NCBI GenBank assembly: GCA_030710605.1
Contig: CP092874.1
Coordinates: 75,110,133-75,174,132 of the forward strand
Direction: 5' to 3'
Source of the DNA: Cordylochernes scorpioides
Lineage: Eukaryota > Arthropoda > Arachnida > Pseudoscorpiones > Chernetidae
DNA: 64,000 nt
Part shown: positions 6,301-50,645 of the stretch, one piece after another
Layout of the letters: each line of letters opens with the position of its first letter
Position numbering within the stretch: the stretch's first letter is position 1
The notes under the pieces: model-generated
The model's database searches: none
What the model saw: the letters and a program-made list of their open reading frames with translations, nothing else
Told to the model about the DNA's origin: nothing
Program-made: the position numbers and the translations under genes

Positions 6301-9300
6301 TATTCTCATGCCCAGCAATGGCGGCAGCCTTGCAGAAAATTGACATGGACCCACCCAAGATAGAGGACATTGTGACTGCTGTGATAGAGATGCACAGGGA
6401 CATCTGAGGCTCTTCATTGGACACGACAACAACATAAGAAATATAATTACCTGGAGCCAATTAATAAAATTTACTATTCTTTGTTTATATGTGAAAAGGG
6501 GAAATTCTCCAATTTAAAAATGTATTGAAACAAATGCATTTTTAAAAATTTCTCTCAACAAGATTCTACACAGATCAACTAATGTATCAGGACCTAAGAT
6601 CAACCCTATCACTTAAGCAACTAAAATACCTTTTGGCAATTTCAACCATGACAGTAGGCCCCCCACTGTACTGATGAGCTATAGCATAGATTGTTGGCTC
6701 TTCATCAGAATTTTCCAAAGTTAGGTTAGTATATTTATTGGCTTGAATTGGCACTGGTTTCTCAAAGATCAATAAAATACATGGTCTTGATGCATTTTTA
6801 AATGTTAGAATTGCCTTTTTCACATCCACACATTCACATGAATATATTCCTCCTTCAAATTACAAACTACAGGGAACCTTGCAGTAATATCAAAATTCAA
6901 AAGTTCCAAAATCTAAATTTCCTATTGTTTTAATTATTGTTATAGTAAAAAAATTGTTCCAACAGCAGTTCCAAGTGGGGTTGAATTAAAGATTTTTGAC
7001 TGTTTATGGCTTAGAGTTTCAGAGATGGTTATTATCTCTTTTTGAATCAAGATAAGTGTTTCCTCACAAACTTGTTTTCCTTCCACCCACATTTCTCTAA
7101 TGTATTGCGCAGGATGTACCATGGGACTACAACCTGAGAGAAGTGAGAGCCAAGTGTTTTGAAGCCATAGGAGACAAGCAGTCAGCCATCAATGATCTAC
7201 GGGCAGCCACCAAACTGCATAAAGACAACACAGAGGGTTACCTGAAACTGAGCAAGCTGAGTTATGATCTGGCTGACCTGGACGATGCTCTCAAGTAAGT
7301 TCTTTTAGGGGGGTCAGTGGAAGGCTGGTATAACTGTTGTTTTTCGACCGCTACGACCCGAGTTCGATTCCCGCATTGGGCACTTTTTTCCAATTTAAAA
7401 AAAAAAAAAAATGCTCCAATGTCCCCCTATTCTTGCAAAAGTCCAACCCCACCAGCAAGTGCAAGTAACCAAACGGGGCTCTGGCATATTTATTTGTAAG
7501 TGCAAAGTCGAGCTGCTTTTCACATGTGTAGACATGTGGTGCACTTACAGTAAAATTGATAGGCAATCCCATAATATTATGTACAAATCAATAAGCTTGA
7601 GGGATAAGTCTCTTTCAAATACATTTATTTCAAGCTTTCGGGCTCAACCGCCCTTCGACAGGAAATCCTGTCGAAGGGCGGTTGAGCCCGAAAGCTTGAA
7701 ATAAATGTATTTGAAAGAGACTTATCCCTCAAGCTTATTGATTTGTACACTTACAGTAAAAGCAGTCGCCTTCTACCCACCATGATTATCTTTTTTTTTT
7801 TTTTTTTTTTCTTATCCCTAGTACACGTGGCACAGGCCATGATAATCATGGTGGGTAGTTAGCGACTGCTTTTTACTGTAAGCGCACCACATGTCTACAC
7901 ATGTGAAAAGCAGTTCGACTTTGCACTTACAAATGCCAGAGCCCCGTTTGGTTACTTGCACTCGCTGGTGGGGTTGGACTTTTGCAAGAATCGGGGGTCA
8001 TTGGAGCATTTTTTTTTTAAACAGAAAAAAGTGTCCAATGCGGGAATCGAACCCGGGTCCTAGTGGTCGAAAACCAAACGGTTTAACCAGCCTTCCACCG
8101 ACCCCCCATGATTATCATGGCTTGTACCACGTGCACTAGGGATAAGCAAAAAAAAAAAGTTCTTTTAACATCTTCAACATTGAGGCTGACAATTTCTGGA
8201 AATATCTTTCAACGAATCCCAAATGCTCTAGCTTCTTTCTTTTGCCCTCTTCTTGTATACAGTAGAACCTCTCTGTAAAGGTCATCTAGTTGCAGAGACA
8301 AAGTTTTCTCTTAGTGGGGAGCAGCTAAATAGTAAAAATAATCTTCTTCTTTCTTATCTCCACTCAATCATATTAGTGTATCAAGTTGTGTCCCTTAATG
8401 ATGTCTGTTTGACAACCATCATGACTGGGTGAAGTAGAATGCCTTTGTCATTAAGACTGGGAGCACTACTCAGAGGCAGGCCGACTTAGCTCCAAAATAA
8501 ATAGCCGCCTCTGACATGAGGAACAGTCGCCATGTGCAGCGCCTCCTAACATGGAGTACAACTGCTGCTCATCCTGTATACCTGGATCAAGAGCCCTTAC
8601 AGGTTACTATCAGCCTGGCCAGCTGAGCCCAGGTTTTTTAGCTAGCTTGTTACTGCTCCTCCTCCCCTCTTTTTCATCCGAGCTTGGGACCGGCAAAGGT
8701 GGAGTTAGTAAAAAAAAAGTAAAAATGATAATTTTGGTGATAAAAACTGTCCATTTTAGAAAGATAATGAGTGTATCCTTTCATGGAGGTTCTACTGTAT
8801 ATCTAGGCTTGAGTGAGTGCAAGTAACCAAACGGGGATCTGGCACATTTGTAAGTGCAAAGTCGAGCTGCTTTTCACATGTGTAGACATGTGGTGCACTT
8901 ACAGTAAAAGCAGTCCCCTACTTCTACCCATGATTATCATTCTTGTACCACGTGTACTAGGGATAAGCAAAAAAAAAATCTTTGAAAAAAATTTGTATCT
9001 CTTTTATGAATCTCATGTACATCAACCCTAAAAAGAACAACTCAAGAACAAGACACACAATAAAAATATATTTTTAGGATGACAGGTGTTTGATAGGAAC
9101 AACAAAAAAGCTTTAGATAAAAATATAGGCAGAAAAACATGGAGATAATATATATATATCTCTTGTTTTCTATAAATGTGCTGTGAAAGAACTGGCTTTT
9201 GTCTCCATTCTAAACAACTATCAACCAATTATTTTATTTGGCATTATAGTAAATAATTGTTGGGGTAAGGTTTTAAAAAATGTTGAGTTTTAGTCTGGTT

Positions 9301-12300
9301 ATAATTCTATGTAGAAGAGAATATGTATGTTGTTAGGCCATTTCTTCAGTCTCTTCTTCTGGACTGCAGCACATACAACCTGCTCTTATAAATGTCTTTT
9401 TCATTATATACAGTTAAACCTGTCTATAGCGCCCGATTTTAAACATTTTACATTAAAAGTGACCTGTCTATAGCACCCTATTTTGGTGAGTCCCAAGACA
9501 GGTTTAACTGTACTTAATGCTAGATAGATTTGATCTCAATTACACCATATTTCTAGCCAATATGGAATGTCCTGTTGTTGTTGTTTATTATCCCCTTGTG
9601 TAAAGATTACACGAATTCCATGAGTTCATGCTCCTCGAGCTGTTTTATGATAAGCAGCGGCCTCTCCCAAAGGTCCTGTTTAGTGCATCTAATGCAAGCC
9701 AAAATTTGTTCTGGAGCTGCGGGTGCCAAGCTACATTTTGGGCAAGTGGGGTAGATTTTGTTATTATTTTCTATCTTCAATGGCTTGAGGTGGCCTGTTC
9801 TAAATCTTGTTAGTGTTGTTTGATGTTGTCTATTTCTGATGTTCAGAGCTCCTCCTGGGTCCGCTCCACTGTACCAACTGTGCTTAGGTGGGATCCTCCA
9901 GTTCTTGTTTATTTTTGTTTTGGCTACTGTTTCTATTTCTTTAAAAGTAAGATGGAATGTCCTTTAATCCTCTACTATACCTTTCCATGATGTGAATACT
10001 TTATAAGAGCCCCTAGAAACCTGTTTATGTGTAAGTTTCTCTAAACTAGAAAGCTTGTGTACGATAATGCCAACCATCCTTGAAATATTAATGTAGAGTT
10101 GGCCATTCTGGTTGACATGCCAGGGTTTTTTTTTTAACTATTCTACAACCTGACTGAGGTATATAGTAAGTTAAGAAAAAGGCGAGGTAGTGATTGATTA
10201 CTTCTTGATTTCTTTATTATAGACAATATCCATTAATTGGTACTGATAACTGAGAACAATTTTCAAATGTGTATTAAAAATACCCACTTGATTTCATAAC
10301 TTCTCATTTAAAAAACTTTCATCAATAGAAACTCCAGATAATTGAGACAACTACTTAACAAATAGTACAAATTGTTGAAACATTTAGGTTGTGTCATGTT
10401 AAAATCTTGTAAGCCAACAATGGTTGATGATGTCACAGTTCTGTGAGGGAGTGCCTGAAGGTGGACCCAGACCATAAGCCCTGCTTCTCTCACTACAAGT
10501 CCCTCAGGAAGGTGTCTAAGGATCTGGAGGCTGTCAAGAGGCTCTCCTCAGAGTCAGACTTTGCCGGCTGCATCAGCCGTGCCCAGGCTGCTCTGGAGAA
10601 TCCCCATCCAGACCTGGTCACCTTTGAGATCAAGTCCCGCCTCTGCTCCTGCCAGCTCAAGGTAGATTGCCTGGTGCCACCTATGTTTTGGTGATATCAA
10701 CACAGTGACTGATTCATCATCCTACAATGAAGGAGTGTGTTGTTTTTGAGTAATGTCTGTCACATTACTCCCACTGAACATATTTATATATTCTAATTTT
10801 GTTCAACCCTATAAGTATGTATGAGCAGATATTACCCTGATGGGGAGTTGCTAACCTGATTTGATTATAATAAAATGGATATAGGTCATTATTTATTTAG
10901 TTTTTTTTTTTTTAAGTCTTTCTTGAGCAGAATGTGTTATGGCACAAATTCACTCATCTCCTGCAAAAAAGAAGAAAGATGTAATAATGGTGTGCTTTCA
11001 TGTTAGAGTAATGTGTGTGTTGCACTGAGGAGTCATTACCTTCATTAGAGGAACTGGGGTCCTCCTTAGGTAGACTTGAGTTATCACAATTAGGAAGAAT
11101 CTCAAGGTAACAAGGCCAAATAAATTTCTATGTGTGACATTTCCATAGCTGCATTGAATAGTTGTCAACCCAGAGTCCATTTAGGACTGTTGGGGCAGTT
11201 AAGATTAAATATTTTCTTGCAAAATGTTTTCATTGTTGTTTTGGGTGGGAGGATATTTTGTTTTTAGTTCCTTGAAAGTTTGTCCATTACTTGATGTTAT
11301 CACTCCAGTGGGTTCCTAGTCTTTCCTGTTGTCTGGAGGTTAAACTGGTCCAAGACTTGATGGGTGTGAGATCTACCCTAGCCATTCAATTCTTGTAATA
11401 ATGGTATCCTCCAAGTATATTTTATTCCATACTTCTTAAATGGTGACTTGGACTACATAGAGAATTCTTCTGTAGCACTTCATCTCAGGAAGTCTGTTCT
11501 TGCAACTCCTCGGTTCCATACTTCAAAATGAAATTCCACAGAAATTCAATGAGTCTTAACCCTTACTGGTCTACAAGCCACTGGCAGTGTGTTAGGGTTA
11601 ACTAACCGGGCTGCAAGCTGCTATCAGTGGCTTCTATGTAAACATGGGGAGGCAAGCGCCAGTGTTGTGTTTCCTGAAAATCATGTGAGAATCTTTCTGA
11701 ATCATCTTCCATTCCCTTTTGCCTTATTTTGTTACTAATTTTCCTTGCATTTTTATTTCTTTTTCAACATGAATTCTAATTTGATAAAGCACAATTTGGA
11801 TTATAAACACAAGGTAATAAGAACAAATCCAAGTAAATAAATAGTGTGTGCCGTTTCGGTAACAACGTTGTTACCGAAACGGCACACACTATTTATTTAC
11901 TTGGATTTGGTCTTATTACCTTGTGTTTTTTTAATTCTAATTTGTTTGATCGCTCTGAACCTCCATTTTTGTATCATTTATCATCAACTGAAAGTGTTCT
12001 TATATTTAATTTGATATTAGAGTCAAGCTACTGAAATTTACTAATTTGATGAGTCAAGGGAACATTATGAAGAGCCAGACATTTGGTGTTTCCCAAAATG
12101 ATCAACAGATTCATCAGCCCCTATTTGCTGCCCCATCCTAGGTAGACCCAATTACATTGCAGTCACCAATATTTCAAGCTATTTTTTACCAGCCACTTCA
12201 TTAAAATGATTTGCTTGGAAACTAATAGATATGCAAAAGAAAAAATACCCTTAAAAACTTTTTTTTTTAAATCTCTAAGTGTTTAGACTGAGGTCACTGT

Positions 12301-15300
12301 GAATAAATTTCTAGCATTCCTTGGCTGCATTCTCAATATTGAAATTATACCTTTACCCTCAATAGATGACTACTGGTCCTCAAAGATTTTCTAAAAAGAT
12401 GTCAATTTTCTCAGCGATTAAAAAAAAAAAATCAAGCAAATTTATTCCTCACCTGGTAGAAGAACAGGTTTTTATTGTGAAACCTATAGCTCTTAATTCT
12501 TTATTGAAATATAAGTCAAAAAACCTTTTTTTTTTTTTTGTGATTTTTAAAAATGTTTTTATTCACTAATAATTATAATTCCATTTGTAAAACATGATGT
12601 TTTTTTTATTATATTTAATAATATGGGGATTTAAGAGGAGATGCACAAGTTGATTGTATTACATGCGTAGCAACCTCTATACTTACATTAACAAATGCAT
12701 GCACGGACCGAAAAGGGTTAATCTTTATTCTATAATATTTTTTGGTTTTGGAATACTGATATAGACTGAATAAGAAATCTTCCACAGCCTGTGTCATATA
12801 TAATTGTTATTAGATGAACAAATAGGGAAAGAAAAATATTGTACTGATATCAGTACTATAATTTTGTTTATCACTCAGTACTCAGGTTTTAAAGATGTGC
12901 TTTTACAAAGTAATATTTATCCATCAATTGAAAACAGGTGCATCTTGGATCTATAAAAAAATATTGAAATAAAAATAATTTTGTATATTAAATGCAGATG
13001 TTTTATTGAAAGTGCAGTTAAACCTGTCTATAGCGCCCCCTCTAAATAGCGCCTTCCTCTCTATAGCGCCCGATTTTAAATACGTAGTACGATGCAATTT
13101 ACATTAAAAGTGACCTGTCTATAGCACCCTATTTTGGTGAGTCCCAAGAGGGGGTGCTATAGACAGGTTTAACTGTATAATTTCTATGGATTGCAATATT
13201 TTTGGAAGAACATGGGATAGAAATGACTAGGATGAACCCACATCTCTCCAGTGATGGCTGTCATCAGATTGTCTGTGCTGCAGGGAGGAGAGGCAGAGGC
13301 TGCTGTGTCCACATGTTCTGATGCCATCAAGCTCAATCCTAATGCTCACACCTACTGTGATCGGGCTGACGCTCACATTGCTGCAGATAACTTCGAGGAA
13401 GGTAGGTGATGCTAACCTGTTTTACATTTTTTATTTTATATTAAGGGGGTCGGTGGACAAGTGGTCTAAACCGTTGGTTTTCGACCGCTACGACCCGGGT
13501 TCAATTCCCACATTGGGCAATTTTTCTGTTTAAAAAAAAAATGCTCCAATGGCCCCCATTTCTTGTGAAATTCCTACCCCACCAACGAGTGCAAGTAACC
13601 AAACGGAGTTCCGGCACTTTTGTAAGTGCAAAGTCAAACTGCTTTTCACATGTGTAGACATGTGGTGCACTTATAGTAAAAGAAATTGCCTACTTCTACC
13701 CACCGTGATTATCATGGCCTGTACCATGTGTACTCTAGGGATAAGCAAAAAATAAAACATTTTTTTATTTTCCCCCTTCTCTCACTCTTTCTTATTGGAA
13801 CTTTTATATTTAATATGACTTACCAGAATGTAGTTGCAAGGTTTTCCCATTATGTACCAAATGTAATTCTCAACCTGCAACTCCAAACCACATTATTGAC
13901 TATATTAGGTCATCCAATGATGAGCTCTACTCATCCCCAGCAGACACCATCTCAAGCTCTATAGACTTGTTACCCTAATATGATTGAGTGGAGATAAGAA
14001 AGATTAGTAGAACACAACCCCTGCCATGAGAGATTCACCCACATCGATGAAGCCTGGTTGATCTGTTAATGGAAGGTGTTTTGTGGATTTAATGTAGAAA
14101 GGTACAGGAAGTTGGTATTCATCTGCACACCTCTCCCTTTTAATAAATATATTAGTAGAAATACCTAAAACAATGTGTTTTAAAAATTTTCTTTGTGCAA
14201 AGCCTACAAATTCATTCATAAAGCTTATATACCAGTTTTGGAAAATTTTAACAAGAGTCCATTGGTACAGGAAGAGCTACGATAGTCCAAAACAATAGTA
14301 AACAGGTTGACTCTTGTTAAAATTTTCCAAAACTGGTATATAAGCTTTGTGAATGAATTTGTAGGCTTTGCACGTAGGCTTTGGCCTGTACCAATGAGAG
14401 TCAATTCTCATGGAATTCGTGTAATCTTTACACAAGGGGATAAGAAACAACAACAACAACATGAGAGTCCATTACTCAAAGCCATGTTATTCATTATTGG
14501 CTTTTGTTCAAATTTGTCAAAACTCTGGTGTTGTGGGCATATTTACTGATCGGAATTTACACACTCTGCCTAAAGAAGTTAAAGCAAATTCAGTAGAACC
14601 TCCATGAGAGGACACTTCTCTACAAAGGAAAGTTTTCATTGCCAAATTACCATTTTTAATATTTAGCAACTCTCCGGTAAGAGGACACTTCTTCCTAAAG
14701 AACACTTTGGCTCTGCAACTAGGTGTCCTTTAAGGAGAGGTTCTACTGTATATTATTTTGGTGTGTTTATAATAAATAATAATAATGCACAAATTAACAT
14801 TGACTTTAATTAAAGCTATACCTTTATTTTTTAGTTTGTTGCTTTCCTAATAAAATAATCCATTTTGATTATACAAAAATAAGTTAAGGCACCTCTCCTA
14901 GTCATCCCTCTAAATGTAGTAAATGCTGTAATTAGCTAGAATAGTACCAACAAATTATTGATATTGAAGTAGTTATTGGTCAAACTCTATGTTATTGCCA
15001 TCATCAAGCTCTCTGTTCTTCACATATAGGAAACACAAGGTAAATTAGATGCACTTAACAACACCTTTGGGAGAGGCTGCTGCTTATCATCAAACAGCTT
15101 GAGGAGCATGAATTCATGGAATTTGTGTAATCTTTACACAAGAGGATAAGATACAACAGACCAAATCCAAATAAATAAATAGTGACGTTTTGATAACAGT
15201 GTTGTTACCATCATCAGACAAGTATTGAATCAATTTATCAATACTGAATCTATTTATTTATTTGGGTCTGGTTTTATTGTCTTGTGTTTCTAATCTATAA

Positions 15301-17102
15301 CTCATATTGTGCCTTATCACATATAGGAAGTTTATGACCTCACTGATGATTTATCTCATTTTGTCTGGCTAGCTTTCTTTTCTTCCAGGGTCAATCTAGG
15401 GATTTGTCTAATTTGATGTGTCAATCCTCTTTTTGGTCTTTCTTTTCCCTCTTAATGGGGACATCAACGATGCCTTGAATAATGCAAGGTAATAAGACCA
15501 AATCCAAATAAATAAATAGTGTATGATCTTTCGGTAACAGCATTATTACCATATTCAGACAAAAATACTGATAGATAGTAACATGGTAATAACGCTGTTA
15601 CCGAAATATCACACACTATTTATTTATTTATTTGGATTTGGTCTTATTACCTTGTTTATAATCTATAATCCAAATTGTGCCTTATCGCCTTGAATAATGG
15701 TTTTCTTCAAGTATTCCCGTCCTCTTTGGTGATCTGGCCCTAGTAGCTGATGGTCAGAGCCAGTCCTTTCTGAATCTCTAACATAGTCCCCACTGTGGTG
15801 GTTCCAGCTCTGAGAGACTACCAGGAGGCAGCCAACCTGGAACCAGACCTGAACAGAGCCCAGTCCGGCATCCAGAAAACACAGAAACTTATCCGACAAG
15901 CCAAGAAGAGGGACTACTACAAAATCCTGGGAGTCAAGAGGTGAGTGTCCAAACATTGTATTTTCCACCCTATTTAACTTGTATTCATTGCCACCTGTAA
16001 GTAAATTACAATTGAAGACTTTGTGGTTTGGTGATCTAAGCTGCTGCTATGGGCAACCTGGATCTAGAACCTGTGTATTTAAAAATATATATTAATAGCT
16101 CAGTGAGCCTCAATTCTTTACTAGCCCAACCCCAGAGTACAAGCAACCACATACTTTGGTCTTAGATGATGACCTTAACAAGTCCATATCCAAATAGATA
16201 ACAGAGTTGTTATTGAAACATCATGAAATGACTATTTGTAGATATGGTCTTGTTATCCTATGTTTATAATCTATGATCCAAATTGTGCCTTATCATGGAG
16301 AATCAACTGTATTCTATACCTAATATATTTGGTGACAATGGTAACAAGTAGCAATTTTGTCTTTGACAATATTGATATATTGACACGTATAAAATTGGGA
16401 AAGACAAACTTCAAAATGATAAAGCAAGTTTTTTTGATACACAAAACAAAATTACAGTCAGAGATGCAATGAATGCAGTGTAGCAAAAAATATCTAAATA
16501 TAAGATCTGTTCATAATTTTTTCCTCTCTAGCTACTGACATGTTTCTGGCAAGGATTCCTTCAGTATCTTGGAAACTTGTCCCTAGTAACTTTGTATAAT
16601 TTTTCTTGTGGTGTGAAGATCAGCTTTGTCATTGTAGCATCCATTTGTCTACTTAAAGGGAAGTCTTGGCTATGACATGGTGATGAAATCCTGTTGTCAG
16701 TGTTGTCTAGTCCACAGCACCTATGGCCTCAAGATCTTCATTTTGTCTTCCTTATAATATAAATGATAACCTATGGTACCCTCTGTATTCAACCCCGTAG
16801 ACAGACCTAGAACTGAGTGTGTGTGGATCCCCAGGACTGCCAACAAGAAGGAGATCCTGCGAGCCTACCGCAAGCTGGCCCAGAAATGGCATCCTGACAA
16901 CTTCCGCGGGGATGAGAAGCAGTCAGCACAGAACAAGTTCATTGACATAGCAGCAGCCAAGGAAGTACTGTCAGACCCAGAGAAGAGGCAGAAGTTTGAC
17001 AACGGAGAGGATCCATTGGACCCTGAGGCTCAAGCTAATCAAGGCTTCCATCCATTTGGAGGCCAAGGATTCCAACACTTCACCTTCAAGTTCAACTGGT
17101 GA
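3205..17102 (+). CDS. DNAJC3: DNAJC3 / p58IPK ER co-chaperone, eight exons, 5' incomplete
   Basis: Spliced gene: exons 3205-3311, 4702-4901, 5283-5426, 7113-7294, 10439-10661, 13284-13401, 15808-15940 and 16835-17102. All introns have AG acceptors and GT donors, and phases join without a break to give about 457 codons. The family is about 500 residues, so only the N-terminal signal-peptide region is missing, presumably in an exon upstream of the window. The product has tandem TPR repeats (exons 1-7) and a C-terminal J domain containing the HPD motif (WHPDNF) and the family signature FIDIAAAKEVLSDPE. In known homologues the protein sits in the ER lumen, binds unfolded clients through the TPRs and stimulates BiP ATPase through HPD; it also restrains PERK/PKR-type kinases. 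Identification is strong from domain order and motif spelling. Confidence 0.95.
3663..4020 (-). mobile_element. Repeat A retroposon, copy 2
   Basis: Same unit as 181-553, with target-site duplication ACCAAATTTCT (from 3652) / ACCAGATTTCT (4021-4031), one mismatch. Lies in the intron between visible exons 1 and 2. Confidence 0.8.
4032..4701. other. Intron sequence, nothing recognised
   Basis: No coding signal or repeat recognised up to the acceptor at 4700-4701. Confidence 0.45.
4702..4901 (+). CDS. DNAJC3: DNAJC3 exon, TPR 2-3
   Basis: Acceptor TCACAG, donor GTGAGT. Joins the previous exon as ...AI-EGDPENYMTHFKRATVYLALG and continues with VIQLKPDFAAARYQRGTLLL, two canonical TPR units with their Ala/Gly positions. 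It ends in phase 0 after the EWV codons. Confidence 0.95.
5283..5426 (+). CDS. DNAJC3: DNAJC3 exon, linker and TPR 4
   Basis: The acceptor AG at 5281-5282 gives a phase-0 join (EWV-LRLQPDSQEALSAY) and the donor is GTAACT at 5427. Encodes the linker and the helix FVHDRMYDHALSLLSKIIQ. This is the most diverged exon compared with vertebrate homologues. Confidence 0.88.
5525..5956 (-). mobile_element. Repeat A retroposon, copy 3
   Basis: Longer version of repeat A with an extra ~60 bp (GGGGATGAGTAGAGCACATC...) also found in the LINE-like 3' fragments. Flanked by TTCAGACTAA (5515-5524) / TTCAGATTAG (5957-5966). Confidence 0.78.
6228..6407 (+). pseudogene. Non-LTR retrotransposon C-terminal fragment
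   Basis: Open frame of 59 codons whose peptide has a C-x2-C...H-x4-C cluster (CNNCPGVELTPTHIFSCP), followed by a short helix and stop. This matches the cysteine/histidine C-terminal domain that follows the reverse transcriptase in Jockey/LOA-type LINEs. No upstream RT is retained, so it is a 5'-truncated relic in the intron. Confidence 0.65.
6408..7112. other. Intron sequence, nothing recognised
   Basis: AT-rich; a pogo-like fragment (AATTAAAGATTTTTGACTGT) lies near 6980-7005. Otherwise unremarkable. Confidence 0.4.
7113..7294 (+). CDS. DNAJC3: DNAJC3 exon, TPR 5-6
   Basis: Acceptor TGCGCAG, donor GTAAGT. Encodes DVPWDYNLREVRAKCFEAIG followed by the DLRAATKLHKDNTEGYLKLS TPR. It ends in phase 2 and the split codon is completed by the first base of the next exon. 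A SINE cluster begins only 13 bp downstream of the donor. Confidence 0.93.
7556..7748. mobile_element. Hairpin retroposon with near-perfect 83-bp arms, nested in SINE B
   Basis: 83-bp inverted arms (7581-7748) around a 2-nt centre, plus a one-sided 25-nt tail at 7556-7580. Flanked by a 13-bp duplication ACTTACAGTAAAA (7543-7555, 7749-7761). The arm contains CTGTCGA, a GGGC/GCCC stem and GAAAGCTT, close to a hammerhead ribozyme core (one core base off). Confidence 0.8.
7791..8106 (-). mobile_element. SINE B, minus strand, inserted in an older SINE B
   Basis: Full-length copy from poly-T (tail) to GGGGGTCGGTGG head. Flanked by CATGATTATC duplications (7781-7790, 8107-8116) taken from the host SINE, so it is the younger copy. 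Confidence 0.85.
8260..8797. mobile_element. P2 transposon split by repeat A
   Basis: Ends CAGTAGAACCTCTCTG and GGAGGTTCTACTG, each next to TA. The internal AGTAAAAAT block is interrupted by a repeat A copy at 8341-8705. Confidence 0.78.
8341..8705 (-). mobile_element. Repeat A retroposon, copy 4, nested in P2
   Basis: Same structure as 181-553, with flanking TAGTAAAAATA (8330-8340) / TAGTAAAAAAA (8706-8716). Confidence 0.8.
8812..8979 (+). mobile_element. SINE B, 5'-truncated
   Basis: Lacks the tRNA-like head and starts at GAGTGCAAGTAACCAAACGG. It keeps the CACATGTGTAGACATGTGG block and the GGGATAAGC-poly-A tail. Confidence 0.75.
9411..9510. mobile_element. P3 MITE (CAGTTAAACCTGTCTATAG), short form
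   Basis: Ends CAGTTAAACCTGTCTATAGC / ...GACAGGTTTAACTG with TA on both sides. An internal deletion leaves 100 bp against ~160-177 bp for other copies. Confidence 0.8.
9590..9960 (-). pseudogene. Non-LTR retrotransposon 3' end (C-terminal domain)
   Basis: Minus-strand translation contains a region like QTTLTRFRTGHLKPL, then CPKCSLAPAAPEQILAC and a C-terminal LEEHELMEFV before a stop. This is the RNase-H-distal and Cys/His C-terminus typical of Jockey/I-clade LINEs. The same 3' end (…GTGTAAAGATTACAC…) recurs at 14395-14462, 15044-15157, 19009-19115 and 62290-62395, often ending in a (CAA)n tail. Confidence 0.7.
9961..10438. other. Intron sequence, nothing recognised
   Basis: No open frame, repeat or RNA gene that I can support. 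Confidence 0.4.
10439..10661 (+). CDS. DNAJC3: DNAJC3 exon, TPR 6-7
   Basis: Acceptor GTCACAG, donor GTAGAT. The phase-2 join gives LNSVRECLKVDPDHKPCFSH, the conserved ECLK-DPDHK motif of the family. It ends CSCQLK in phase 0. Confidence 0.93.
10662..11771. other. Intron sequence, nothing recognised
   Basis: About 1.1 kb between the donor at 10662 and the hairpin element at 11784 without recognisable features. Confidence 0.4.
11784..11932. mobile_element. Head-to-head hammerhead-arm hairpin retroposon
   Basis: 60-bp nearly perfect inverted arms (11807-11926) meeting at GGTAACAACGTTGTTACC, each arm ending in the GAAAC side of the hammerhead family. A one-sided tail (ATAAAGCACAATTTGGATTA) lies at 11784-11806. 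Flanked by a 12-bp duplication AATTCTAATTTG (11772-11783, 11933-11944). Confidence 0.8.
11945..13014. other. Intron sequence, nothing recognised
   Basis: About 1.07 kb of AT-rich sequence with several A/T homopolymers and no supported feature. Confidence 0.4.
13015..13175. mobile_element. P3 MITE
   Basis: 161 bp with inverted ends CAGTTAAACCTGTCTATAGC / GACAGGTTTAACTG. The interior repeats CTATAGCGCC and AAAAGTGACCTGTCTATAG; TA follows the right end. Confidence 0.85.
13284..13401 (+). CDS. DNAJC3: DNAJC3 exon, TPR 8
   Basis: Acceptor GCTGCAG, donor GTAGGT. Encodes a short TPR exon (CSDAIKLNPNAHTYCDRADA). It ends in phase 1. A SINE B copy lies 36 bp beyond the donor. Confidence 0.92.
13438..13756 (+). 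mobile_element. SINE B, full length
   Basis: Head GGGGGTCGGTGGACAAG with a near-B-box GGGTTCAATTCCC, central domain, and tail GGGATAAGC-poly-A. Flanked by ACAT(T)nATTTT repeats at 13424-13437 and 13757-13771, differing by one T. Confidence 0.85.
13856..14006 (+). mobile_element. LINE-like 3' fragment sharing its end with repeat A
   Basis: Ends ACCCTAATATGATTGAGTGGAGATAAGAAAGA, i.e. the same tail as repeat A, but the preceding ~100 bp (CTCAACCTGCAACTCC...) are found only in this class of copy (also 38857-39085 and 49324-49540). Confidence 0.6.
14202..14366. repeat. Hairpin with ~58-bp arms and ~48-bp loop
   Basis: 14202-14260 (GCCTACAAATTCATTCATAA...) is nearly perfectly complementary to 14309-14366. 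The loop is ACATT...GGTTGA-type unique sequence. The family was not seen elsewhere in the window. Confidence 0.75.
14395..14462 (+). mobile_element. Non-LTR 3' end with (CAA)n tail
   Basis: ATTCGTGTAATCTTTACAC then AAGGGGATAAGAAACAACAACAAC. Matches the 3' terminus of the LINE seen at 9590-9960. Confidence 0.65.
14591..14748. mobile_element. P2 MITE
   Basis: 158 bp, CAGTAGAACCTCCATGAG / GAGGTTCTACTG ends, with TA at the right end. Confidence 0.82.
15033..15317. mobile_element. Hammerhead-arm retroposon carrying a nested non-LTR fragment
   Basis: Arms ACACAAGGTAA... and ...TTGTCTTGTGT, plus a one-sided tail CTAATCTATAACTC...CCTTATC. Flanked by a perfect 12-bp duplication CACATATAGGAA (15021-15032, 15318-15329). 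Contains CTGATGATGGTAACAACA (minus strand) with the core G mutated (AAAAC instead of GAAAC). A plus-strand LINE 3' end (15044-15157; LEEHEFMEFV-stop) is nested in the left arm. Confidence 0.8.
15485..15686. mobile_element. Head-to-head hammerhead-arm retroposon
   Basis: 202 bp of inverted arms (CAAGGTAATAAGACC...) with a one-sided 32-nt tail ending CCAAATTGTGCCTTATC. Flanked by a perfect 13-bp duplication GCCTTGAATAATG (15472-15484, 15687-15699). Arms hold decayed hammerhead cores (GGTAATAACGCTGTTACC then GAAATATC). Confidence 0.85.
15808..15940 (+). CDS. DNAJC3: DNAJC3 exon, last TPR and start of J domain
   Basis: Acceptor GGTTCCAG, donor GTGAGT. Encodes ALRDYQEAANLEPDLNRAQS, a basic linker, then RDYYKILGVK, helix I of the J domain. 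The family places an intron at this same point within the J domain. Confidence 0.94.
16170..16303. mobile_element. Decayed hammerhead-arm hairpin element
   Basis: Arms ACAAGTCCATATCCAAATAG / TATGGTCTTGTTATCC with the characteristic tail TTTATAATCTATGATCC...CCTTATCA. Older copy, no intact core. Confidence 0.55.
16835..17102 (+). CDS. DNAJC3: DNAJC3 terminal exon, J domain with HPD
   Basis: Acceptor ATCCCCAG. Completes the J domain: helix II (KKEILRAYRKLAQKW), the catalytic HPD tripeptide, and helices III-IV. The tail GEDPLDPEAQ plus a Gly/Phe-rich end (FKFNW) precedes the TGA at 17100-17102. There is no KDEL-type ER retrieval signal, as in other family members. Confidence 0.96.
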
Positions 17103-18064: not shown

Positions 18065-18146
18065 TTTTGTTTTCTCCACTTCTATATTTTAATGGGAAAT
18101 GTTTATTTTTAACCTATACACACTTTTTAAACAAAGTTTTAGCAAT

Positions 18147-18529
18147 ATAAAATAAAAGGATTTAAAAGCGCGAATGTTTCTTTTATACATAAAACGAACT
18201 TCTACTGTCCTTACTGCGATGAAAAAATATATTGGGAGGGCTTGGCTCATCAGTGGTGAACCCTCCCAGCGGTTTCGCCAATTTAATCCACCAGACCGCT
18301 TCTCAGAGCTCTAATACTGTATTGGATCATTCTGCTTTTATATGCTACACTGAAGGATGGAATCTTAGAAATGGTTTTCAAGTAAACTATGGACATAAGC
18401 TTATAGGACAGTATATATTTTTTCATCGCAGTAAGGACAGTAGAAGTTCGTTTTATGTATAAAAGAAACATTCGCGCTTTTAAATCCTTTTATTTTATAT
18501 GTATAGATGGCACGTTATTGCTTTGTGTT
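18147..18529. mobile_element. Hairpin retroposon with 80-bp arms downstream of DNAJC3
   Basis: Inverted arms (from ATAAAATAAAAGGATTT... inward past AAAACGAACTTCTACTGTCC), a ~170-bp unique centre, and a one-sided tail GTATAGATGGCACGTTATTG. Flanked by a 14-bp duplication AAAGTTTTAGCAAT (18133-18146, 18530-18543). Present in both arms of the large duplication (right copy ~62870-63262). Confidence 0.75.
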
Positions 18530-18679
18530 AAAGTTTTAGCAATGTTGAGCAGGAATACCTTGGTGAACTGAAAAATGACCTGAACCTATCCTCTAATGAG
18601 AGAGCACCTCAAGAAGAGATAAGTGTTAGGTTATCAGTTTCTCCTGAGAGGCTTTACTTTGTGTGTTTGTCTTCTATTA

Positions 18680-36704: not shown

Positions 36705-36923
36705 ATAACAAACGTAACAGTGTTTAGAAAAGTATTTGGTTAATTCTGGAATAATCAACGATATTTATTCAGACAGATGGAACAATTCATCAACTTTTAT
36801 TTGCACAACCATGAGCTGTCTTTTCCATTCCACTTGATCCTAGTAAAAATTCACAATTCAAAAAGGTTGGTAGAACTTCAATTAGAACTCAAGGTAATAA
36901 GACCAAATAAATAAATAGTGTGT

Positions 36924-36957
36924 GACGTTTCGGTAACAGTGTTGTTACCATCTTCAG
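36924..36957 (-). ncRNA. Hammerhead ribozyme motif (family 1), full consensus
   Basis: On the minus strand: CTGAAGA, T, stem II GGTAACA-(4 nt)-TGTTACC with 7 perfect pairs, then GAAAC and GTC. All hammerhead core bases (CUGANGA, GAAA, UH) are present. Stem III would be the self-complementary ACGT with no loop, as in hammerheads that act as dimers. Stem I is short (TGT/ACA adjoining). Confidence 0.8.
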
Positions 36958-37036
36958 ACAAAAGTACTGAATGAGAAATTTTACCACAGCATAATACAAG
37001 AAAATAAGACCTAATCCAAATAATATAATAGTGTGT

Positions 37037-37070
37037 GACGTTTCGGCAACAGCATTGTCAACATCATCAG
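37037..37070 (-). ncRNA. Hammerhead ribozyme motif (family 1b)
   Basis: CTGATGA, stem II TTGACA-ATGC-TGTTGC with GT pairs and one outer mismatch, GAAACGTC. Core intact. Confidence 0.7.
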
Positions 37071-37137
37071 ACAAAAGAATAAAAAAAAAAACTTTTTTAT
37101 TTATTATTATACACTTTATTTTTAAAAATTCTTTTGT

Positions 37138-37171
37138 CTGATGATGATGACAATGCTGTTGCCGAAACATC
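37138..37171 (+). ncRNA. Hammerhead-like motif, cleavage triplet variant
   Basis: CTGATGA, stem II around GACAATGCTGTTGC, GAAAC followed by ATC instead of GTC. It still satisfies the NUH rule but loses the second stem III pair. Confidence 0.6.
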
Positions 37172-37634
37172 ACATACTATTAAATTATTTGGATTAGGTC
37201 TTATTTTCTTGTATTATAATCTATAATCCAAATTGTGCTTTATCATTTACCACAGCATGTTTTAAATAGTAACTGTTATCAAGTGGGTAAACAAGATAGC
37301 AGATAAGAAGAAGAAAGTTTTCTGAGAAACACAGAATATTATTCTTAGAATTAAGAGTGGAAAAAACCTACTTTTTTTTTTTTCATTCTCATTTCATTTT
37401 CATTCATTCAGTACTTTTGCCTGAAGATGGTAACAACGCAGTAACTGAAATGTCACACACTATTTATTTATTTGGATTTGGTCTTATTACCTTGTGTTTA
37501 TAATCTCTAATCCAAATTGTGTTTTATCATCTTCAATTAGAACGGTATGCATGTTGTACTTATACAATGTTTAGGTACCATATTTGGATTATAGATTAGA
37601 AACATTATTTATATTCACATTTTTATTTATTATA

Positions 37635-37811: not shown

Positions 37812-37835
37812 TATTTATATAAACACATATGTATT

Positions 37836-38320
37836 TATTTGGTCATAGTGTGTGACGTTTCGGTAACAGCAATATTACCACCATCAGACAAAAGAATACT
37901 CTGCCTTTGCCAGTCCCAAGCCCGGATGAAAAAGGAGGAGGGGGAGCAGTAACAAGCTCACTAAAAAACCTGGGCTCAGCTGGCCCGGCTGATAGTACCC
38001 TGTAAGGATTCCTAATTCAGGGATACAAAATGAGCAGCGTCTGTACTCCATGTTAGGAGCAGCTGTACATGGCATCTGTTCCTCATATCAGAGGCAGTCA
38101 TTTTTTTTTGGAGCTAAGTCGGCCTGCCACTGAGTAGTGCTCCCAGTCTTAATGACAAAGAAAGATGCATTCTACTTCACCCAGTGTGGAGATAAGAAAG
38201 ATGAAGAAGACAATAAAATGTCTGATGATGCTGTTACTGAAACGTCCCACAATATTAAATTATTTGGATTAGGTCTTATTTTCTTATATCTATAATACAA
38301 ATTGTGCTTTATCATTTTTA
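37836..38320. mobile_element. Hammerhead-arm element interrupted by repeat A
   Basis: Left arm ...GTGTGTGACGTTTCGGTAAC (core near 37860-37893, CTGATGG variant), then repeat A (37905-38205, plus-strand view starting GCCTTTGCCAGTCCC). Right side is a shortened core CTGATGATGCTGTTACTGAAAC and the CTATAATACAAATTGTGCTT tail. Confidence 0.7.
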
Positions 38321-40477: not shown

Positions 40478-40489
40478 TACCTTGCTGAA

Positions 40490-40625
40490 CAGCGATTTTT
40501 ATTAAAACCTCTATGAAAGAACACCTCTCTACAAAGGACAGTTTCCATTGCCAAAATTATCATTCTTACTAATTAACAACTCTCTGGAAAGAGGACACTT
40601 CTCCCTAAAGGACACTTTGGCTGTT
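40490..40625 (+). mobile_element. P2 fragment
   Basis: AAAACCTCTATGAAAGAACA ... AAGGACACTTTGGCTG; 3' end missing. Confidence 0.6.
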
Positions 40626-41713: not shown

Positions 41714-41858
41714 GTTTGGCATACTTGAAAGTGCAAAGTCGAACTGCTTTTCACATGTGTATACATGTGGTGCACTTACAGTAAAAGCAGTCGTCAACCT
41801 CTACCCACCATGATTATCATGGCATGTACCACGTGTACTAGGGATAAGCAAAAAAAAA
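41714..41858 (+). mobile_element. SINE B, 5'-truncated
   Basis: GTGCAAAGTCGAACTGCTTT to GGGATAAGC-poly-A. Right-arm copy at ~46886-47032. Confidence 0.75.
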
Positions 41859-41944
41859 ACCAATAAAACCTCCATGAGAGGACACTCACGCTAGAGGACA
41901 CCTCTACAGGACAGTTTCCATTTACTAAAATTACCATTTTTACT

Positions 41945-42055
41945 AACACAAGGTAATAAGACCAAATCCAAATAAATAGTGTGTGACGTTTCGGTAAAAG
42001 CGTTGTTACCATCTTCAGACAAAAGTATTGAATGAGAAATTTTACCACAGCATGT
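41945..42055. mobile_element. Hammerhead-arm half element inside a P2 fragment
   Basis: ACACAAGGTAATAAGACC... with core at 41985-42018 (minus strand): CTGAAGA, GGTAACA/TTTTACC (one mismatch), GAAACGTC. The flanking ~41866-41944 is a P2 fragment. Right-arm counterpart 46733-46766. Confidence 0.72.
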
Positions 42056-42180
42056 TTTAAATAGTTACTGTTATCAAGTGTGTAAATAAGATGGCAGATA
42101 AGAAGAAGATAGTTTTCTGAGAAACACAGAATATTATTCTTAGAATTAAAAGTGGAAAAAACCCACTTTTTTTTTTTTTA

Positions 42181-46570: not shown

Positions 46571-46732
46571 TAAAAAAAAAAAGTGCGTTTTTTCCACTTT
46601 TAATTCTAAGAATAATATTCTGCATTTTTCTCAGAAAACTATCTTCTTCTTATCTGCTATCTTATTTACACACTTGATAACAGTAACTATTTAAAACATG
46701 CTGTGGTAAAATTTCTCATTCAATACTTTTGT

Positions 46733-46766
46733 CTGAAGATGGTAACAATGCTTTTACCGAAACATC
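46733..46766 (+). ncRNA. Hammerhead-like motif, family 1 (ATC variant)
   Basis: CTGAAGA, GGTAACA/TTTTACC, GAAACATC. Counterpart of 41985-42018, which keeps GTC. Confidence 0.6.
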
Positions 46767-46885
46767 ACACACTATTTATTTGGTCTTATTACCTTGTGTT
46801 AGTAAAAATGGTAATTTTAGTAAATGGAAACTGTCCTGTAGAGGTGTCCTCTAGCGTGAGTGTCCTCTCATGGAGGTTTTATTGT

Positions 46886-47032
46886 TTTTTTTTGCTTATC
46901 CCTTGTACACGTGGTACATGCCATGATAATCATGGTGGATAGAGGTTGACGACTGCTTTTACTGTAAGTGCACCACATGTCTACACGTGTGAAAAGCAGT
47001 TCGATTTTGCACTTTCAAGTATGCCAGAGCCC
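46886..47032 (-). mobile_element. SINE B, truncated
   Basis: Poly-T then GCTTATCCCTTGTACACG through AAAGCAGTTCG; mirrors 41714-41858. Confidence 0.72.
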
Positions 47033-47966
47033 TGTAGGTTTTATTGTACTGCTATCATCTGGTAGACTATAATTCCTACATCTTAGTGAGCTACAGAGGC
47101 AGACTTGCTGTATCAGCCAACAGAACCTACCGACAGAATTAATTACCTGCCAATCAACACTAAGAATAGCACAGGCACCTATGTGCCTCCGCCCAAATTA
47201 TGGTCAACACACGTAGTGGTGGGTAATACAGTGGAACCTCCCTGTAAAGGACATCTAATTGCAGAGTCGAAGTGTCCTTTAGAGAGAGCTGGATAATTGA
47301 AACTATTTACAATAATTCATATTGTAACAAAGTATTTATTAGCAGAGTATTATTATTATATTTTGTTATACTCTGTACACTTCCCTCTTTTGCTTATCTT
47401 TTGTTTATCACTCATAGTTTGTTCTTGCCTGAAATAAATTGTTGTCTCATCCCGAGGTTTGTCTTTCCTAATTTTCCATGTGGCAATATTGTAGTAGAGT
47501 AGGTAACAGAATTGTCAAAAAGAGGAATATAACAATGACTTCTTGAAGCTGAAAGATAAGATAGGAGGAAGTGATACTGATTACACATTTTTAATCCAAA
47601 GATTTGCTTAAAAACTTTTGGCCTTGTTTTCCCATTATTATATTTTAGTTTTCAATTCAGTTTTATATATTTTCAATATATTCATTATATATAAAGATTA
47701 TAAATGGGGTATACCTACTTTTGTTTCTTTTAGGAATTGTCAGTTAAAAAGGCCAAAAATAATATTCTTGATTTATAAAGAATACAGCAGAAACTTTTTG
47801 TAAAGGACAACACCTAGTTGCAGAGCCAAAGTGTCCTTTAGGGAGAAGTGTCCTCTTTCCAGAGAGTTGTTAATTAGTAAGAATGATAATTTTGGCAATG
47901 GAAACTGTCCTTTGTAGAGGTGTTCTTTCATAGAGGTTTTAATAAAAATCGCTGTTCAGCAAGGTA

Positions 47967-48124
47967 CAGTTAAACCTGTCTATGGCACTCCCTCTAAATA
48001 GCACCCGATTTTAAATACATAGTATGATGCGATTTATATTAAAAGTGACCTGTCTATAGCACCCTCTCTATAGCACTCTATTTTGGTGAGTCCCTAGAGG
48101 GGGCGCTATAGACAGGTTTAACTG
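47967..48124. mobile_element. P3 MITE
   Basis: CAGTTAAACCTGTCTATGGC / GACAGGTTTAACTG; mirror of 40320-40477. Confidence 0.83.
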
Positions 48125-48414
48125 TATTGTTAAAGGCAGAGATCACATGCAGCAAAGTTTTTTTTTTCTTATTCTAGCTTATAACACTAACCCAAAGGTT
48201 TTGAACTAATGGTCCGTCTTCAGAGACAAAGTATTTTATATGTATTGATATCCTTTTGAAGATATTGTAATCCAAGGACTTATACTTTCAATACAGGAGG
48301 AATATATTAGCTTTTTTTTGCACTTAGTATTTTATTATACTTCCACAACTGAACTACTTGTTGAAATATAATAAAGTATCAAGTATGGTAAAGCACAATT
48401 TTTTATTCTTTTGT

Positions 48415-48448
48415 CTGATGATGGTGACAATGCTGTTGCCGAAACATC
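48415..48448 (+). ncRNA. Hammerhead-like motif, family 1b (ATC variant)
   Basis: CTGATGA, GGTGACA/TGTTGCC, GAAACATC; mirror of 39996-40029. Confidence 0.62.
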
Positions 48449-48501
48449 ACACACTATTAAATTATTTGGATTAGGTCTTATTACCTTGTGTTTATAATCT
48501 A

Positions 48502-48927
48502 CTAGTCGAATGACCCGGGTAACACCCGTGTTTTACCCGATTGAATGTTTTGATTCAAATACTATTTGTTACAATTATAAATTGGCGCCTTATATAAATG
48601 CATATGTTAGTTAATAACTATAGCCTATGTGCTTTATCTGTCTATGTACTGTTGGCTTCCGTAGGCGTCTCTTACTGGGAAAAAGAAAGAGAGGATTCCA
48701 TTTGGTTATTAACTAATATATGCATTTATTTAAGGAGCGACCCGCTCCAACACAATGGTTACAAAAACGAAAAAGCGAGTGGGGGGGGGGGGGGGGGGCA
48801 TGATGGGGGGGCAAAGGTGGCGTGATCGTAGCCAACCAATAGGAGGGCGCCATTCCAAAAAAAAAGCAAACGGTGACAGAGATGACTGATTAAGAGATGA
48901 AGAATGATGCTCATAACTGTATAGAGA
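48502..48927 (-). mobile_element. Non-autonomous Helitron (right copy)
   Basis: Mirror of 39479-39942. The 3' end on the minus strand reads ...CACGGGTGTTACCCGGGTCA then CTAG. Has a long poly-G run at ~48780-48798 and the gypsy-like LTR end (~48652-48700). Confidence 0.78.
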
Positions 48928-49319
48928 ATAATCCAAATTGTGCCTCATCATAGGTCTTATTTCTTGTATTAAAAGTATCAAGTTTAAAAATCCAATATAT
49001 GTGTGCCTTTTGTATTGAAATGTGTTTGGTCTTGTAAATCTCACATCTATAATTCAAATAGTACCTCATTACTTGTTTCTATTAAATATGGTATGAAAGA
49101 ATTTTTTAAGTTTAGAATTCCTGTTAACATATACACTAAAACCTCCATGAGATGAAACCTGCACTAGAAGACACCTCTCTACAAAGGACAGTTTTCATTT
49201 TCTAAATTACATTTTTTACTATTTAGCAACTCTCCGGTAAGAGGACAGCTCTCCCTAAAGGAAACTTTGGCTCTGCAATTAGATGTCCTTAAAAGGCCTC
49301 ATCAAGTCACATAATGGAA

Positions 49320-49540
49320 AATCTTCTTTCTTATCTCCACTCAATCATATTAGGGTATCAAGCATGCAGAGCTTGAGACTTTTGATGGAGTCTGCAGGAA
49401 ATGAGTAGAGCTCATCAATAGATGAGCCAATAGTCATTAATGTAGTTTGGGGCAGCAGGTTGAGAATTGCAATATGGAAAGTTGACTTACTTGATGATGT
49501 TCCAAGATCCTTTGTTTCAGGAATGGATGGCATTACATGA
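49320..49540 (-). mobile_element. LINE-like 3' fragment (right copy)
   Basis: Mirror of 38857-39085; begins TCTTCTTTCTTATCTCCACT on the plus strand. Confidence 0.6.
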
Positions 49541-49794
49541 TCCAAATAGGTAAATGTGACATTTTGGTAACAGCAATGTGCGAGGATATGGTTACAAGGC
49601 AGCTACTGAAACTCCACACAGAGAACACTTTTTTGGTCTTGTCATTGTGATAATTTACAATTAATTTTTGTGGTAGAGAAATAGACTTTAACACAGTAAT
49701 CTTGGTGACATTCCACACTCAACAATAAGTTCACATTACAAGTAATTAGCTACCTTTCAAAAAGATCATTGAAAATTTCAATTTGTTTTAAAAA

Positions 49795-49945
49795 TAATGA
49801 GTTCTAAAAACAAGGTAATAAGACCAAATCCAAATAAATAAATAGTGTGTGACGTTTCGGTAACAGCATTGTTACCGAAAGGTCACCCACTATTTATTTA
49901 TTTGGATTTGGTCTTATTACCTTGTGTTTATAATCTATAATCCAA
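49795..49945. mobile_element. Compact hammerhead-arm hairpin
   Basis: Arms AACAAGGTAATAAGACC... joined through GTGTGTGACGTTTCGGTAAC / GTTACCGAAAGGTCACCC, followed by the tail TTTATAATCTATAATCC. Mirror of 38495-38640. Confidence 0.7.
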
Positions 49946-50129
49946 ATTTTGCATTATCAAAATAACGAGTTGAATAAAAATATTTTAACTCTTTGTACCA
50001 TAATCCAAACTAAATTAAAATGATAAAGCACAATTTGTATTATAGATATAAGAAAATAAGACCTAATACAAATAATTTAATATTGTGGGACGTTTCAGTA
50101 ACAGCATCATCAGACATCTTATTGTCTTC

Positions 50130-50437
50130 TTCATCTTTCTTATCTCCACACTGGGTGAAGTAGAATGCATCTTTCTTTGTCATTAAGACTGGGAGCACTA
50201 CTCAGTGGCAGGCGGACTTAGCTCCAAAAGAAATGACTGCCTCTGATATGAGGAACAGACGCCATGTACAGCCGCTCCTAACATGGAGTACAGACGCTGC
50301 TCATTTTGTATCCCTGGATTAGGAATCCTTACAGGGTACTATCAGCCGGGCCAGCTGAGCCCAGGTTTTTTAGTGAGCTTGTTACTGCTCCCCCTCCTCC
50401 TTTTTCATCCGGGCTTGGGACTTGCAAAGGCAAAGTA
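50130..50437 (-). mobile_element. Repeat A (right copy), nested in hammerhead element
   Basis: Mirror of 37905-38205: ...GGCAGGCGGACTTAGCTCC to TTGGGACTTGCAAAGGC. Confidence 0.75.
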
Positions 50438-50446
50438 TTCTTTTGT

Positions 50447-50480
50447 CTGATGATGGTAATAATGCTGTTACCGAAACGTC
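50447..50480 (+). ncRNA. Hammerhead ribozyme motif (family 1), full consensus
   Basis: CTGATGA, T, stem II GGTAATA-(ATGC)... pairing with TGTTACC, GAAACGTC. The left-arm counterpart (37860-37893) carries CTGATGG, a core-breaking change. Confidence 0.78.
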
Positions 50481-50509
50481 ACACACTATGACCAAATAAA
50501 TACATATGT

Positions 50510-50621
50510 AGAACGAAGTTTGACAATTATACCGCAAATGTTTTGTTTAAAAGAAACATTTGTGGTATAATTGTCAAACTTCGTTCTACAATCATATAAG
50601 CCGCATTATATTGTATTATGA
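50510..50621. mobile_element. Hairpin retroposon present only in the right arm
   Basis: 112 bp: ~33-bp arms (AGAACGAAGTTTGACAATTA...) meeting near GTTTTGTTTAAAAGAAAC, then a one-sided tail ACAATCATATAAGCCGCATT... Flanked by AATACATATGT (50499-50509) / AATACATACGT (50622-50632). The left arm has a single uninterrupted copy of the target near 37825-37840. Confidence 0.82.
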
Positions 50622-50645
50622 AATACATACGTGTTTATATAAATA

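What the first reader, a model, noticed from the sequence alone, without database searches (positions are those of the whole stretch)
7543..50632. Hairpin retroposons: inverted arms + one-sided tail + 11-14 bp target duplications
Eight insertions share one design although their sequences fall in several families: 7556-7748 (13-bp duplication), 11784-11932 (12), 15033-15317 (12), 15485-15686 (13), 18147-18529 (14), 36889-37530 (13), 36993-37245 (13), 50510-50621 (11). Each has head-to-head arms and a 20-35 nt extension at one end only. Duplication length points to target-primed reverse transcription, not cut-and-paste. Penelope-like elements are known for inverted LTR-like repeats and a short one-sided extension. 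These minimal, coding-free hairpins look like their derivatives, with hammerhead sequence in the arms of several.
Basis: partly seen in the sequence, partly recalled or inferred. Interest (0 to 1): 0.88.

Follow-up and report, generated by a model that had tools for sequence, protein, structure and literature searches.

The report
Hairpin jumping-gene scars from two-sided copying
This pseudoscorpion DNA holds many short hairpin insertions that look like what is left when a Penelope-type jumping gene copies its RNA from both cut DNA ends at once; that class of element is known, but these scars make its poorly understood insertion step unusually easy to read.

Summary
All eight hairpins exist; seven have exact target duplications of 12-14 bp, the eighth 12 bp with one mismatch, and each has a tail at one end. 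For 50510 the empty site survives in the other arm of a large inverted duplication. The genome is probably Cordylochernes scorpioides. Of 38 fetched copies of one family, 27 show a duplication (mode 14; chance 13 of 1103) and none a left-end tail motif. The Penelope reading is right in kind: two RT/GIY-YIG elements read here are head-to-head twins with 14-bp duplications and a one-sided tail, and a mini-hairpin from a genome sample matches their ends. No master was found for the window's own families. Two results go further. Arms are shared between copies but centres are not (741 of 741 against 18 of 741 pairs), so the hairpin is made anew. In three insertions examined each arm holds sequence the other lacks, so neither copies the other. 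Best explanation: both target strands prime reverse transcription from two start sites about 30 nt apart, and the cDNAs are joined. New variant of a known kind.

The parts
7542..7761 (-). Family B hairpin 7556-7748 with tail on the left and 13-14-bp duplications (7542-7555, 7748-7761); CTGTCGA hammerhead-like variant in both arms
11772..11944 (-). Family A hairpin 11784-11932, tail on the left, 12-bp duplications (11772-11783, 11933-11944); arms meet in the stem-II palindrome GGTAACAACGTTGTTACC
15020..15329 (+). Family A hairpin 15033-15317, tail on the right, 12-13-bp duplications; interrupted at about 15044-15158 by sequence of another repeat
15472..15699 (+). Family A hairpin 15485-15686, tail on the right, 13-bp duplications (15472-15484, 15687-15699)
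18133..18543 (+). Family C hairpin 18147-18529, arms 88 nt 100% complementary, tail on the right, 14-bp duplications; twin at 62870-63258 in the right half
36876..37543 (+). Family A hairpin 36889-37530, tail on the right, 13-bp duplications; non-tail arm longer than tail arm; host of 36993; twin about 50920-51561
36980..37258 (+). Family A' hairpin 36993-37245 nested in 36889, tail on the right, 13-bp duplications; hammerhead-like cores from 37138 (+) and 37070 (-); twin 51208-51457
37825..37836 (.). Empty site: single copy of the 12-mer that is duplicated around the 50510 hairpin in the other arm of the inverted duplication
49791..49971 (+). Further family A hairpin (arms about 49805-49930) with tail on the right and 13-bp duplication with one mismatch
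50498..50632 (+). Family D hairpin 50510-50620, tail on the right, 12-bp duplications with one mismatch; absent from the left arm of the inverted duplication
51195..51470 (-). Twin of 36993 by the inverted duplication: hairpin 51208-51457 with 13-bp duplications
62856..63272 (-). Twin of 18147 by the inverted duplication: hairpin 62870-63258 with 14-bp duplications

Best explanation
The hairpins are coding-free insertions made by Penelope-like machinery through two-sided target-primed reverse transcription. A GIY-YIG/RT complex cuts both strands of an AT-rich site about 13 bp apart. Each free 3' end primes cDNA synthesis inside a PLE-type RNA, at one of two start sites about 30 nt apart, so that one arm begins with the tail and the other does not. 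Both cDNAs run towards the RNA's 5' end and meet head to head; their ends are joined with short AT-rich filler or overlap, and the staggered target is filled in to give the duplication. If the RNA ends soon after the start site the product is a mini-hairpin; if it holds an ORF upstream the product is a twin RT/GIY-YIG element. Shown here: duplications, head-to-head arms, one-sided tail, unique centres, arms that are not copies of each other, and the match of one mini-hairpin family to PLE ends. Inferred: the RNA intermediate, priming on both strands, the joining step, the fixed RNA 5' end, and a PLE source for the window's own families.
For: Duplications in the window, an empty site and 27 of 38 fetched copies against 13 of 1103 mispaired flanks. 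In a 200-kb sample 12 of 79 inverted pairs had a duplication and 12 of these 12 a tail of 23-37 nt on one side. Eleven of eleven GIY-YIG pairs closer than 10 kb are minus-then-plus. L066 and L067: head-to-head RT/GIY-YIG twins, perfect 14-bp duplications, one-sided tail. L044_1186 matches PLE ends over arm and tail. Centres unique, inner ends pile up at one place, arms mutually incomplete in three of three examined. In vitro a PLE protein cleaves and extends both strands and its tail is the stretch between two start sites (PMC11167929, main-text section read).
Against: No PLE with family A-D arms among 42 ends. Duplication not found in 11 of 38 copies. Some arm differences are side-specific (columns 43 and 51), which independent cDNAs from one RNA pool do not predict and inheritance of the hairpin as a unit would. 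Arms of one element agree more than chance at columns 24, 48 and 79. The in vitro work saw no strand difference in start sites, whereas here the tail is on one end only. In the sample scan about 5.8 duplications of 79 are expected by chance.
Confidence: 0.72

Rival explanations
1. Snap-back: one target-primed cDNA folds on itself at a palindrome near its end, primes its own second strand and so makes the hairpin (self-priming, as proposed for bdelloid Penelope elements in PMC3846280).
For: Arms are nearly perfect in some copies (18147 88 nt 100%, 7556 84 nt 100%); in 11784 the arms meet in a self-complementary stem; differences between arms of L066 and L067 are mostly private to one arm.
Against: In L066, L067 and 36889 the tail-bearing arm is the shorter one and the arm without a tail reaches further upstream, so neither can have been copied from the other. 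In A' 32 of 39 pairs are even, so most mini-hairpins do not decide.
Confidence: 0.15
2. The hairpin is propagated as a unit: a hairpin RNA (or DNA) is copied whole, and the centre is merely unstable.
For: Side-specific variants at columns 43 (T in 0 of 38 left, 9 of 38 right arms) and 51 (T in 11 of 37 left, 1 of 37 right); agreement of arms at columns 24, 48 and 79. Seven copies share central sequence.
Against: Only 18 of 741 centre pairs are alike and 28 of 39 centres match no other; by eye the seven that share sequence have longer arms and different joints.
Confidence: 0.1
3. Foldback or MITE-type DNA transposons moved by a transposase acting on terminal inverted repeats.
For: Inverted repeats, target duplications and high copy number; mariner-type and CENP-B/Tc5-type transposases lie in the window.
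Against: The ends are not symmetrical (one-sided tail), interiors are not conserved, and the coding partner found for one hairpin family is RT/GIY-YIG. I did not compare transposon ends with the arms directly.
Confidence: 0.03

Closest known systems
Penelope elements of the bdelloid rotifer Adineta vaga (PMC3846280; passages and Discussion read)
   Same: Head-to-head inverted pLTRs, a 31-bp tail on one of them, 8-10-bp target duplications, palindromes at the joint, pLTR-flanked inserts without the ORF
   Different: There inverted pLTRs flank an ORF or captured DNA and copy number is low; here the usual small product has no interior beyond filler, duplications are 12-14 bp and copies are many; the authors infer self-priming, which the unequal arms here argue against
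Poseidon PAc of Anolis carolinensis, in vitro (PMC11167929; main-text section read)
   Same: Both target strands cleaved and extended, internal start of reverse transcription, tail = stretch between two start sites, minimal hammerhead
   Different: No full insertion was reconstituted and no strand bias of start sites was seen; here the genome copies read have the tail at one end only
Animal retrozymes (PMC7229834; abstract and Discussion read)
   Same: Small, non-coding, hammerhead-bearing, suggested to be moved by PLEs
   Different: Those are direct tandem repeats with circular RNA; these are inverted, single hairpins whose core lacks helix III
L1 twin priming (recalled; only search listings seen)
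   Same: Two target ends prime on element RNA and the cDNAs are joined
   Different: There the two cDNAs cover different parts of the RNA; here both cover the same part, giving overlapping inverted arms

Membership tests
Penelope-like elements (derivatives of) | Autonomous partner with RT and GIY-YIG whose ends match the arms | tested here: met
   For L044_1186 only: matches L066/L067 ends over arm and tail and 24 of 42 PLE ends, mostly one clade; RVT_1 in L067, GIY-YIG in L066 and L067. L044_1186 itself has a 12-bp duplication with one mismatch
Penelope-like elements (derivatives of) | The same partner for the window's own families A-D | tested here: inconclusive
   0 of 42 PLE ends match their arms, but those ends come from the best 146 of 17,015 candidates; the direct search did not complete (last try)
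Penelope-like elements (derivatives of) | Head-to-head inverted terminal repeats with a short tail on one end | tested here: met
   Window, 200-kb sample (12 of 12), L066 and L067. In A' the strict tail motif is at the right end in 24 of 38 and at the left in 0 of 38
Penelope-like elements (derivatives of) | Target site duplication | tested here: met
   empty site
Penelope-like elements (derivatives of) | Minimal hammerhead core without helix III | tested here: inconclusive
   Plain in A/A' (47 distinct cores) and in L066/L067; variant in B; not seen in C or D; stem shuffle control gave no extra support; cleavage not testable here
Retrozymes | Direct tandem repeats with a full type I hammerhead | tested here: not met
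   Arms are inverted; Rfam reports no hammerhead at E<=1 in the window
MITE / foldback DNA transposon | Conserved interior between symmetrical terminal inverted repeats | tested here: not met
   18 of 741 centre pairs alike; tail on one end only
MITE / foldback DNA transposon | Transposase gene with the same ends | not tested
   Transposases were named in the window, but their ends were not compared with the arms

The most novel reading that the evidence does not exclude
Penelope-like elements insert by an asymmetric two-sided reaction: a paired complex in which one RT starts at an inner site and its partner at an outer site about 30 nt away, as a rule, each copying a PLE RNA from one of the two cut strands. 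Hairpins, with or without the ORF, are then the normal product of this third class of retroelement rather than an accident, and each genome copy records the stagger, both start sites, the RNA 5' end and the joining event.
Probability: 0.5. Interest if true: 0.8.

Novelty: new variant of a known kind. Interest (0 to 1): 0.66.

Why it matters
How Penelope-like elements integrate is still open (PMC11167929, section read, says that further steps are yet to be validated). Mini-hairpins are short, numerous and complete, so one genome could give thousands of end-to-end records of the reaction: stagger, start sites, RNA 5' end and joint. They argue against self-priming in the three cases examined and fit the in vitro priming on both strands. 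They also account for a hairpin repeat class that could easily be filed as MITEs or microRNA precursors (the Rfam names).

Tried and rejected
Rfam scans: microRNA and small-RNA names on the hairpins are all below gathering score; hairpin shape alone can explain them. Arm-independence test: mixed. Arms of one element differ at 119 of 451 common-variant cells, against 0.356 expected if independent; columns 24, 48 and 79 agree, CpG columns do not, columns 43 and 51 are side-specific. I therefore base the two-cDNA claim on unequal arms, not on this. Arm differences in L066 and L067 are mostly private and do not decide. Stem covariation: shuffling partners between copies changed pairing little, so no support is claimed. 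Open frame through arm and tail: by my own reading not conserved between A and A'. An RT in head-to-head arms in L047/L064 shows the same layout but matches no hairpin family and gave no duplication; I call it naiad-like from memory. L065 carries GIY-YIG in head-to-head arms that run off the stretch. Short matches of other hairpins near PLE ends (L056_4569 to L077; L058_8898 to L094, L095, L098 and L066; 36993 to L084 and L101) lie in interiors, not in arm plus tail, and were not followed. Paper searches listed no paper whose title or abstract start describes coding-free PLE hairpins; the library holds open-licence papers only, so I do not claim absence from print. PMC12910113 passages did not bear on it.
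Full report
What is there. Seven have exact duplications of 12-14 bp and the eighth has 12 bp with one mismatch. A blind scan of the window found 38 inverted-repeat pairs, 10 with a strong duplication, against 3 of 114 random placements.

An empty site. The window is itself a large inverted duplication: 17409-20289 and 31452-43333 are repeated in reverse at 64000-61086 and 57015-45420, 96-98% identical. The hairpin at 50510 is present in the right arm only. In the left arm the site holds one copy of the 12-mer, and the difference is 123 nt, the element plus one duplication. This shows insertion directly for that element. It also means that 18147, 36889 and 36993 have twins that are not separate events.

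Species. Proteins of Cordylochernes scorpioides match the window's retrotransposon, on contigs whose lengths equal those of five contigs of the held genome (C2, C5, C7, C12, C15); a sixth is 130 bases off C21. G000 has 2.62 Gb in 24 contigs. I take the genome to be that species; this is an inference.

Genome copies. Family A' (36993) had 2366 first-look candidates, of which 40 were scored; two of these are in the window and I fetched the other 38. A duplication of score 9 or more was found in 27 of 38, 18 of the 27 at 12-14 bp (mode 14), against 13 of 1103 mispaired flanks; 11 of 38 had none. At least three of the 27 (L017, L023, L039) consist of sequence like the element's own tail and may not be true duplications. 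The strict tail motif is at the right end in 24 of 38 and at the left end in 0 of 38; measured from the best arm match, the right extension is 24-32 nt in 38 of 38, but in 8 of them the element end was extrapolated. These copies are best matches to a tail-bearing query and so lean towards tails. A 200-kb sample not chosen by sequence does not have that bias: of 79 inverted pairs, 12 had a duplication of 10 or more (5.8 expected from the 7.3% null), and 12 of the 12 had a tail of 23-37 nt on one side. By geometry alone chance would put about 43% in the 20-38-nt one-sided class and 21% in the no-tail class. Family A sequence (query 15485) occurs at 19 merged places in those 200 kb.

Hammerhead core. 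Family A/A' arms carry CTGA[T/A]GA, a 7-bp stem, GAAAC and [A/G]TC, in 47 distinct cores, 9 of them in the window. This is the form without helix III reported for PLEs (PMC6155905, passages read). Family B has a CTGTCGA variant; none was seen in C or D. The stem shuffle control gave no extra support. Rfam reports no hammerhead in L066 and L067 either.

The Penelope link. GIY-YIG gave 146 matches among 150 scored of 17,015 candidates. Eleven pairs lie within 10 kb of each other, and eleven of eleven are minus-then-plus, head to head. Two such pairs were read in full. L066 and L067 have inverted arms 98.7% identical; Pfam finds GIY-YIG in both and RVT_1 in L067, and an RT frame is plain by eye in L066. 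Each has a perfect 14-bp duplication and a tail at one end only, with the core CTGACGA-GGACAAAAGCTTTTTGTC-GAAACGTC near the ends. The mini-hairpin L044_1186, from the 200-kb sample (duplication 12 bp with one mismatch), matches these ends over arm and tail at 81-85% and matches 11 of 22 ends and 13 of 20. Those ends are mostly one clade, so they are not independent witnesses. None of the 42 ends matched the arms of the window's families; two short AT-rich matches of 36993 (L084, L101) lie in its spacer and look like chance.

Made anew each time. The 39 A' elements (38 copies and 36993) share their arms (741 of 741 pairs above threshold) but hardly their centres (18 of 741); 28 of 39 centres match no other, and the centres are 15% G+C. 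One cluster of seven shares upstream sequence because the arms run further, and by eye its joints differ. L021 and L032 have the same duplication and similar centres and are probably one duplicated insertion. The inner arm ends pile up at one place: 4-10 nt beyond TTTTGTCTGATGA in 27 of 39 left arms and 31 of 39 right arms, exactly 7 in 14 and 16 (the method hardly detects less than 4), as if the template RNA ended there.

Two cDNAs, not one. In L066 the left arm (no tail) reaches from 530 to 2055 and the right arm (with the tail) starts at 2052, about 240 nt later in the element. In L067 the tail arm covers about 464-1685, and the other arm runs from 1787 or before (its RT frame is open from 1671) to 3332 and so reaches further upstream. 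In 36889 the non-tail arm covers 233 nt and the tail arm matches only the last 95 nt of that stretch. So in these three each arm holds sequence that the other lacks, and neither can be the template of the other. In A' the non-tail arm is longer by more than 8 nt in 6 elements, the tail arm in 1, and 32 are even.

Mechanism. In vitro, an Anolis PLE protein cleaves and extends both target strands, starts reverse transcription inside the RNA, and its tail is the stretch between two start sites (PMC11167929, main-text section read). The genome pattern here is what that reaction would leave if both cDNAs were joined. Head-to-head repeats, a 31-bp tail and 8-10-bp duplications were described in a bdelloid rotifer and ascribed to self-priming (PMC3846280, passages and Discussion read). 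The unequal arms argue against self-priming in the cases read here. Not explained: why the tail is on one arm and not the other as a rule, when the in vitro work saw no strand difference, and why columns 43 and 51 of the arms differ by side (T in 0 left and 9 right of 38; T in 11 left and 1 right of 37).

Verdict. The class is known; the coding-free hairpin form with unique centres and mutually incomplete arms is, to my knowledge, a new variant, and it makes the insertion step testable by sequence. The weakest point is that no master was found for the window's own families.

Noticed in passing
17409-43333 against 45420-64000: A large inverted duplication, arms 96-98% identical with about 2 kb between them and an 11-kb stretch (Pao-type and gypsy-type retrotransposons) in the left arm only; it may be real or a haplotype misjoin.
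   Followed up: partly
505-559, 3971-4025, 5911-5962, 8653-8711 (-); 37898-37942 (+): Five matches to the type-P1 twister ribozyme, all below gathering score (25.5-38.9 against 67.2 bits), at the end of a dispersed repeat of about 285 nt; the conserved twister letters are kept in the one aligned. Two more weak ones in L045.
   Followed up: partly
41044-41410: A 367-nt insertion in the left arm of the inverted duplication only; its ends look Helitron-like from memory.
   Followed up: no
L047:8384-9742 and L064: An RT fragment of Penelope kin (RVT_1) in head-to-head arms of 1.8 kb; naiad-like by recall, no duplication found.
   Followed up: partly
A' family arms, columns 43 and 51: Variants that recur on one side of the hairpin only (T in 0 left and 9 right of 38; T in 11 left and 1 right of 37); unexplained by the favoured model.
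   Followed up: partly
32429-34111 and 54353-56016: A CENP-B/Tc5-type transposase gene in one open frame in the left arm and split over two frames in the right arm of the inverted duplication.
   Followed up: no
58997-59462: Tandem array of an 86-nt unit, 5.4 copies, 95% matches.
   Followed up: no
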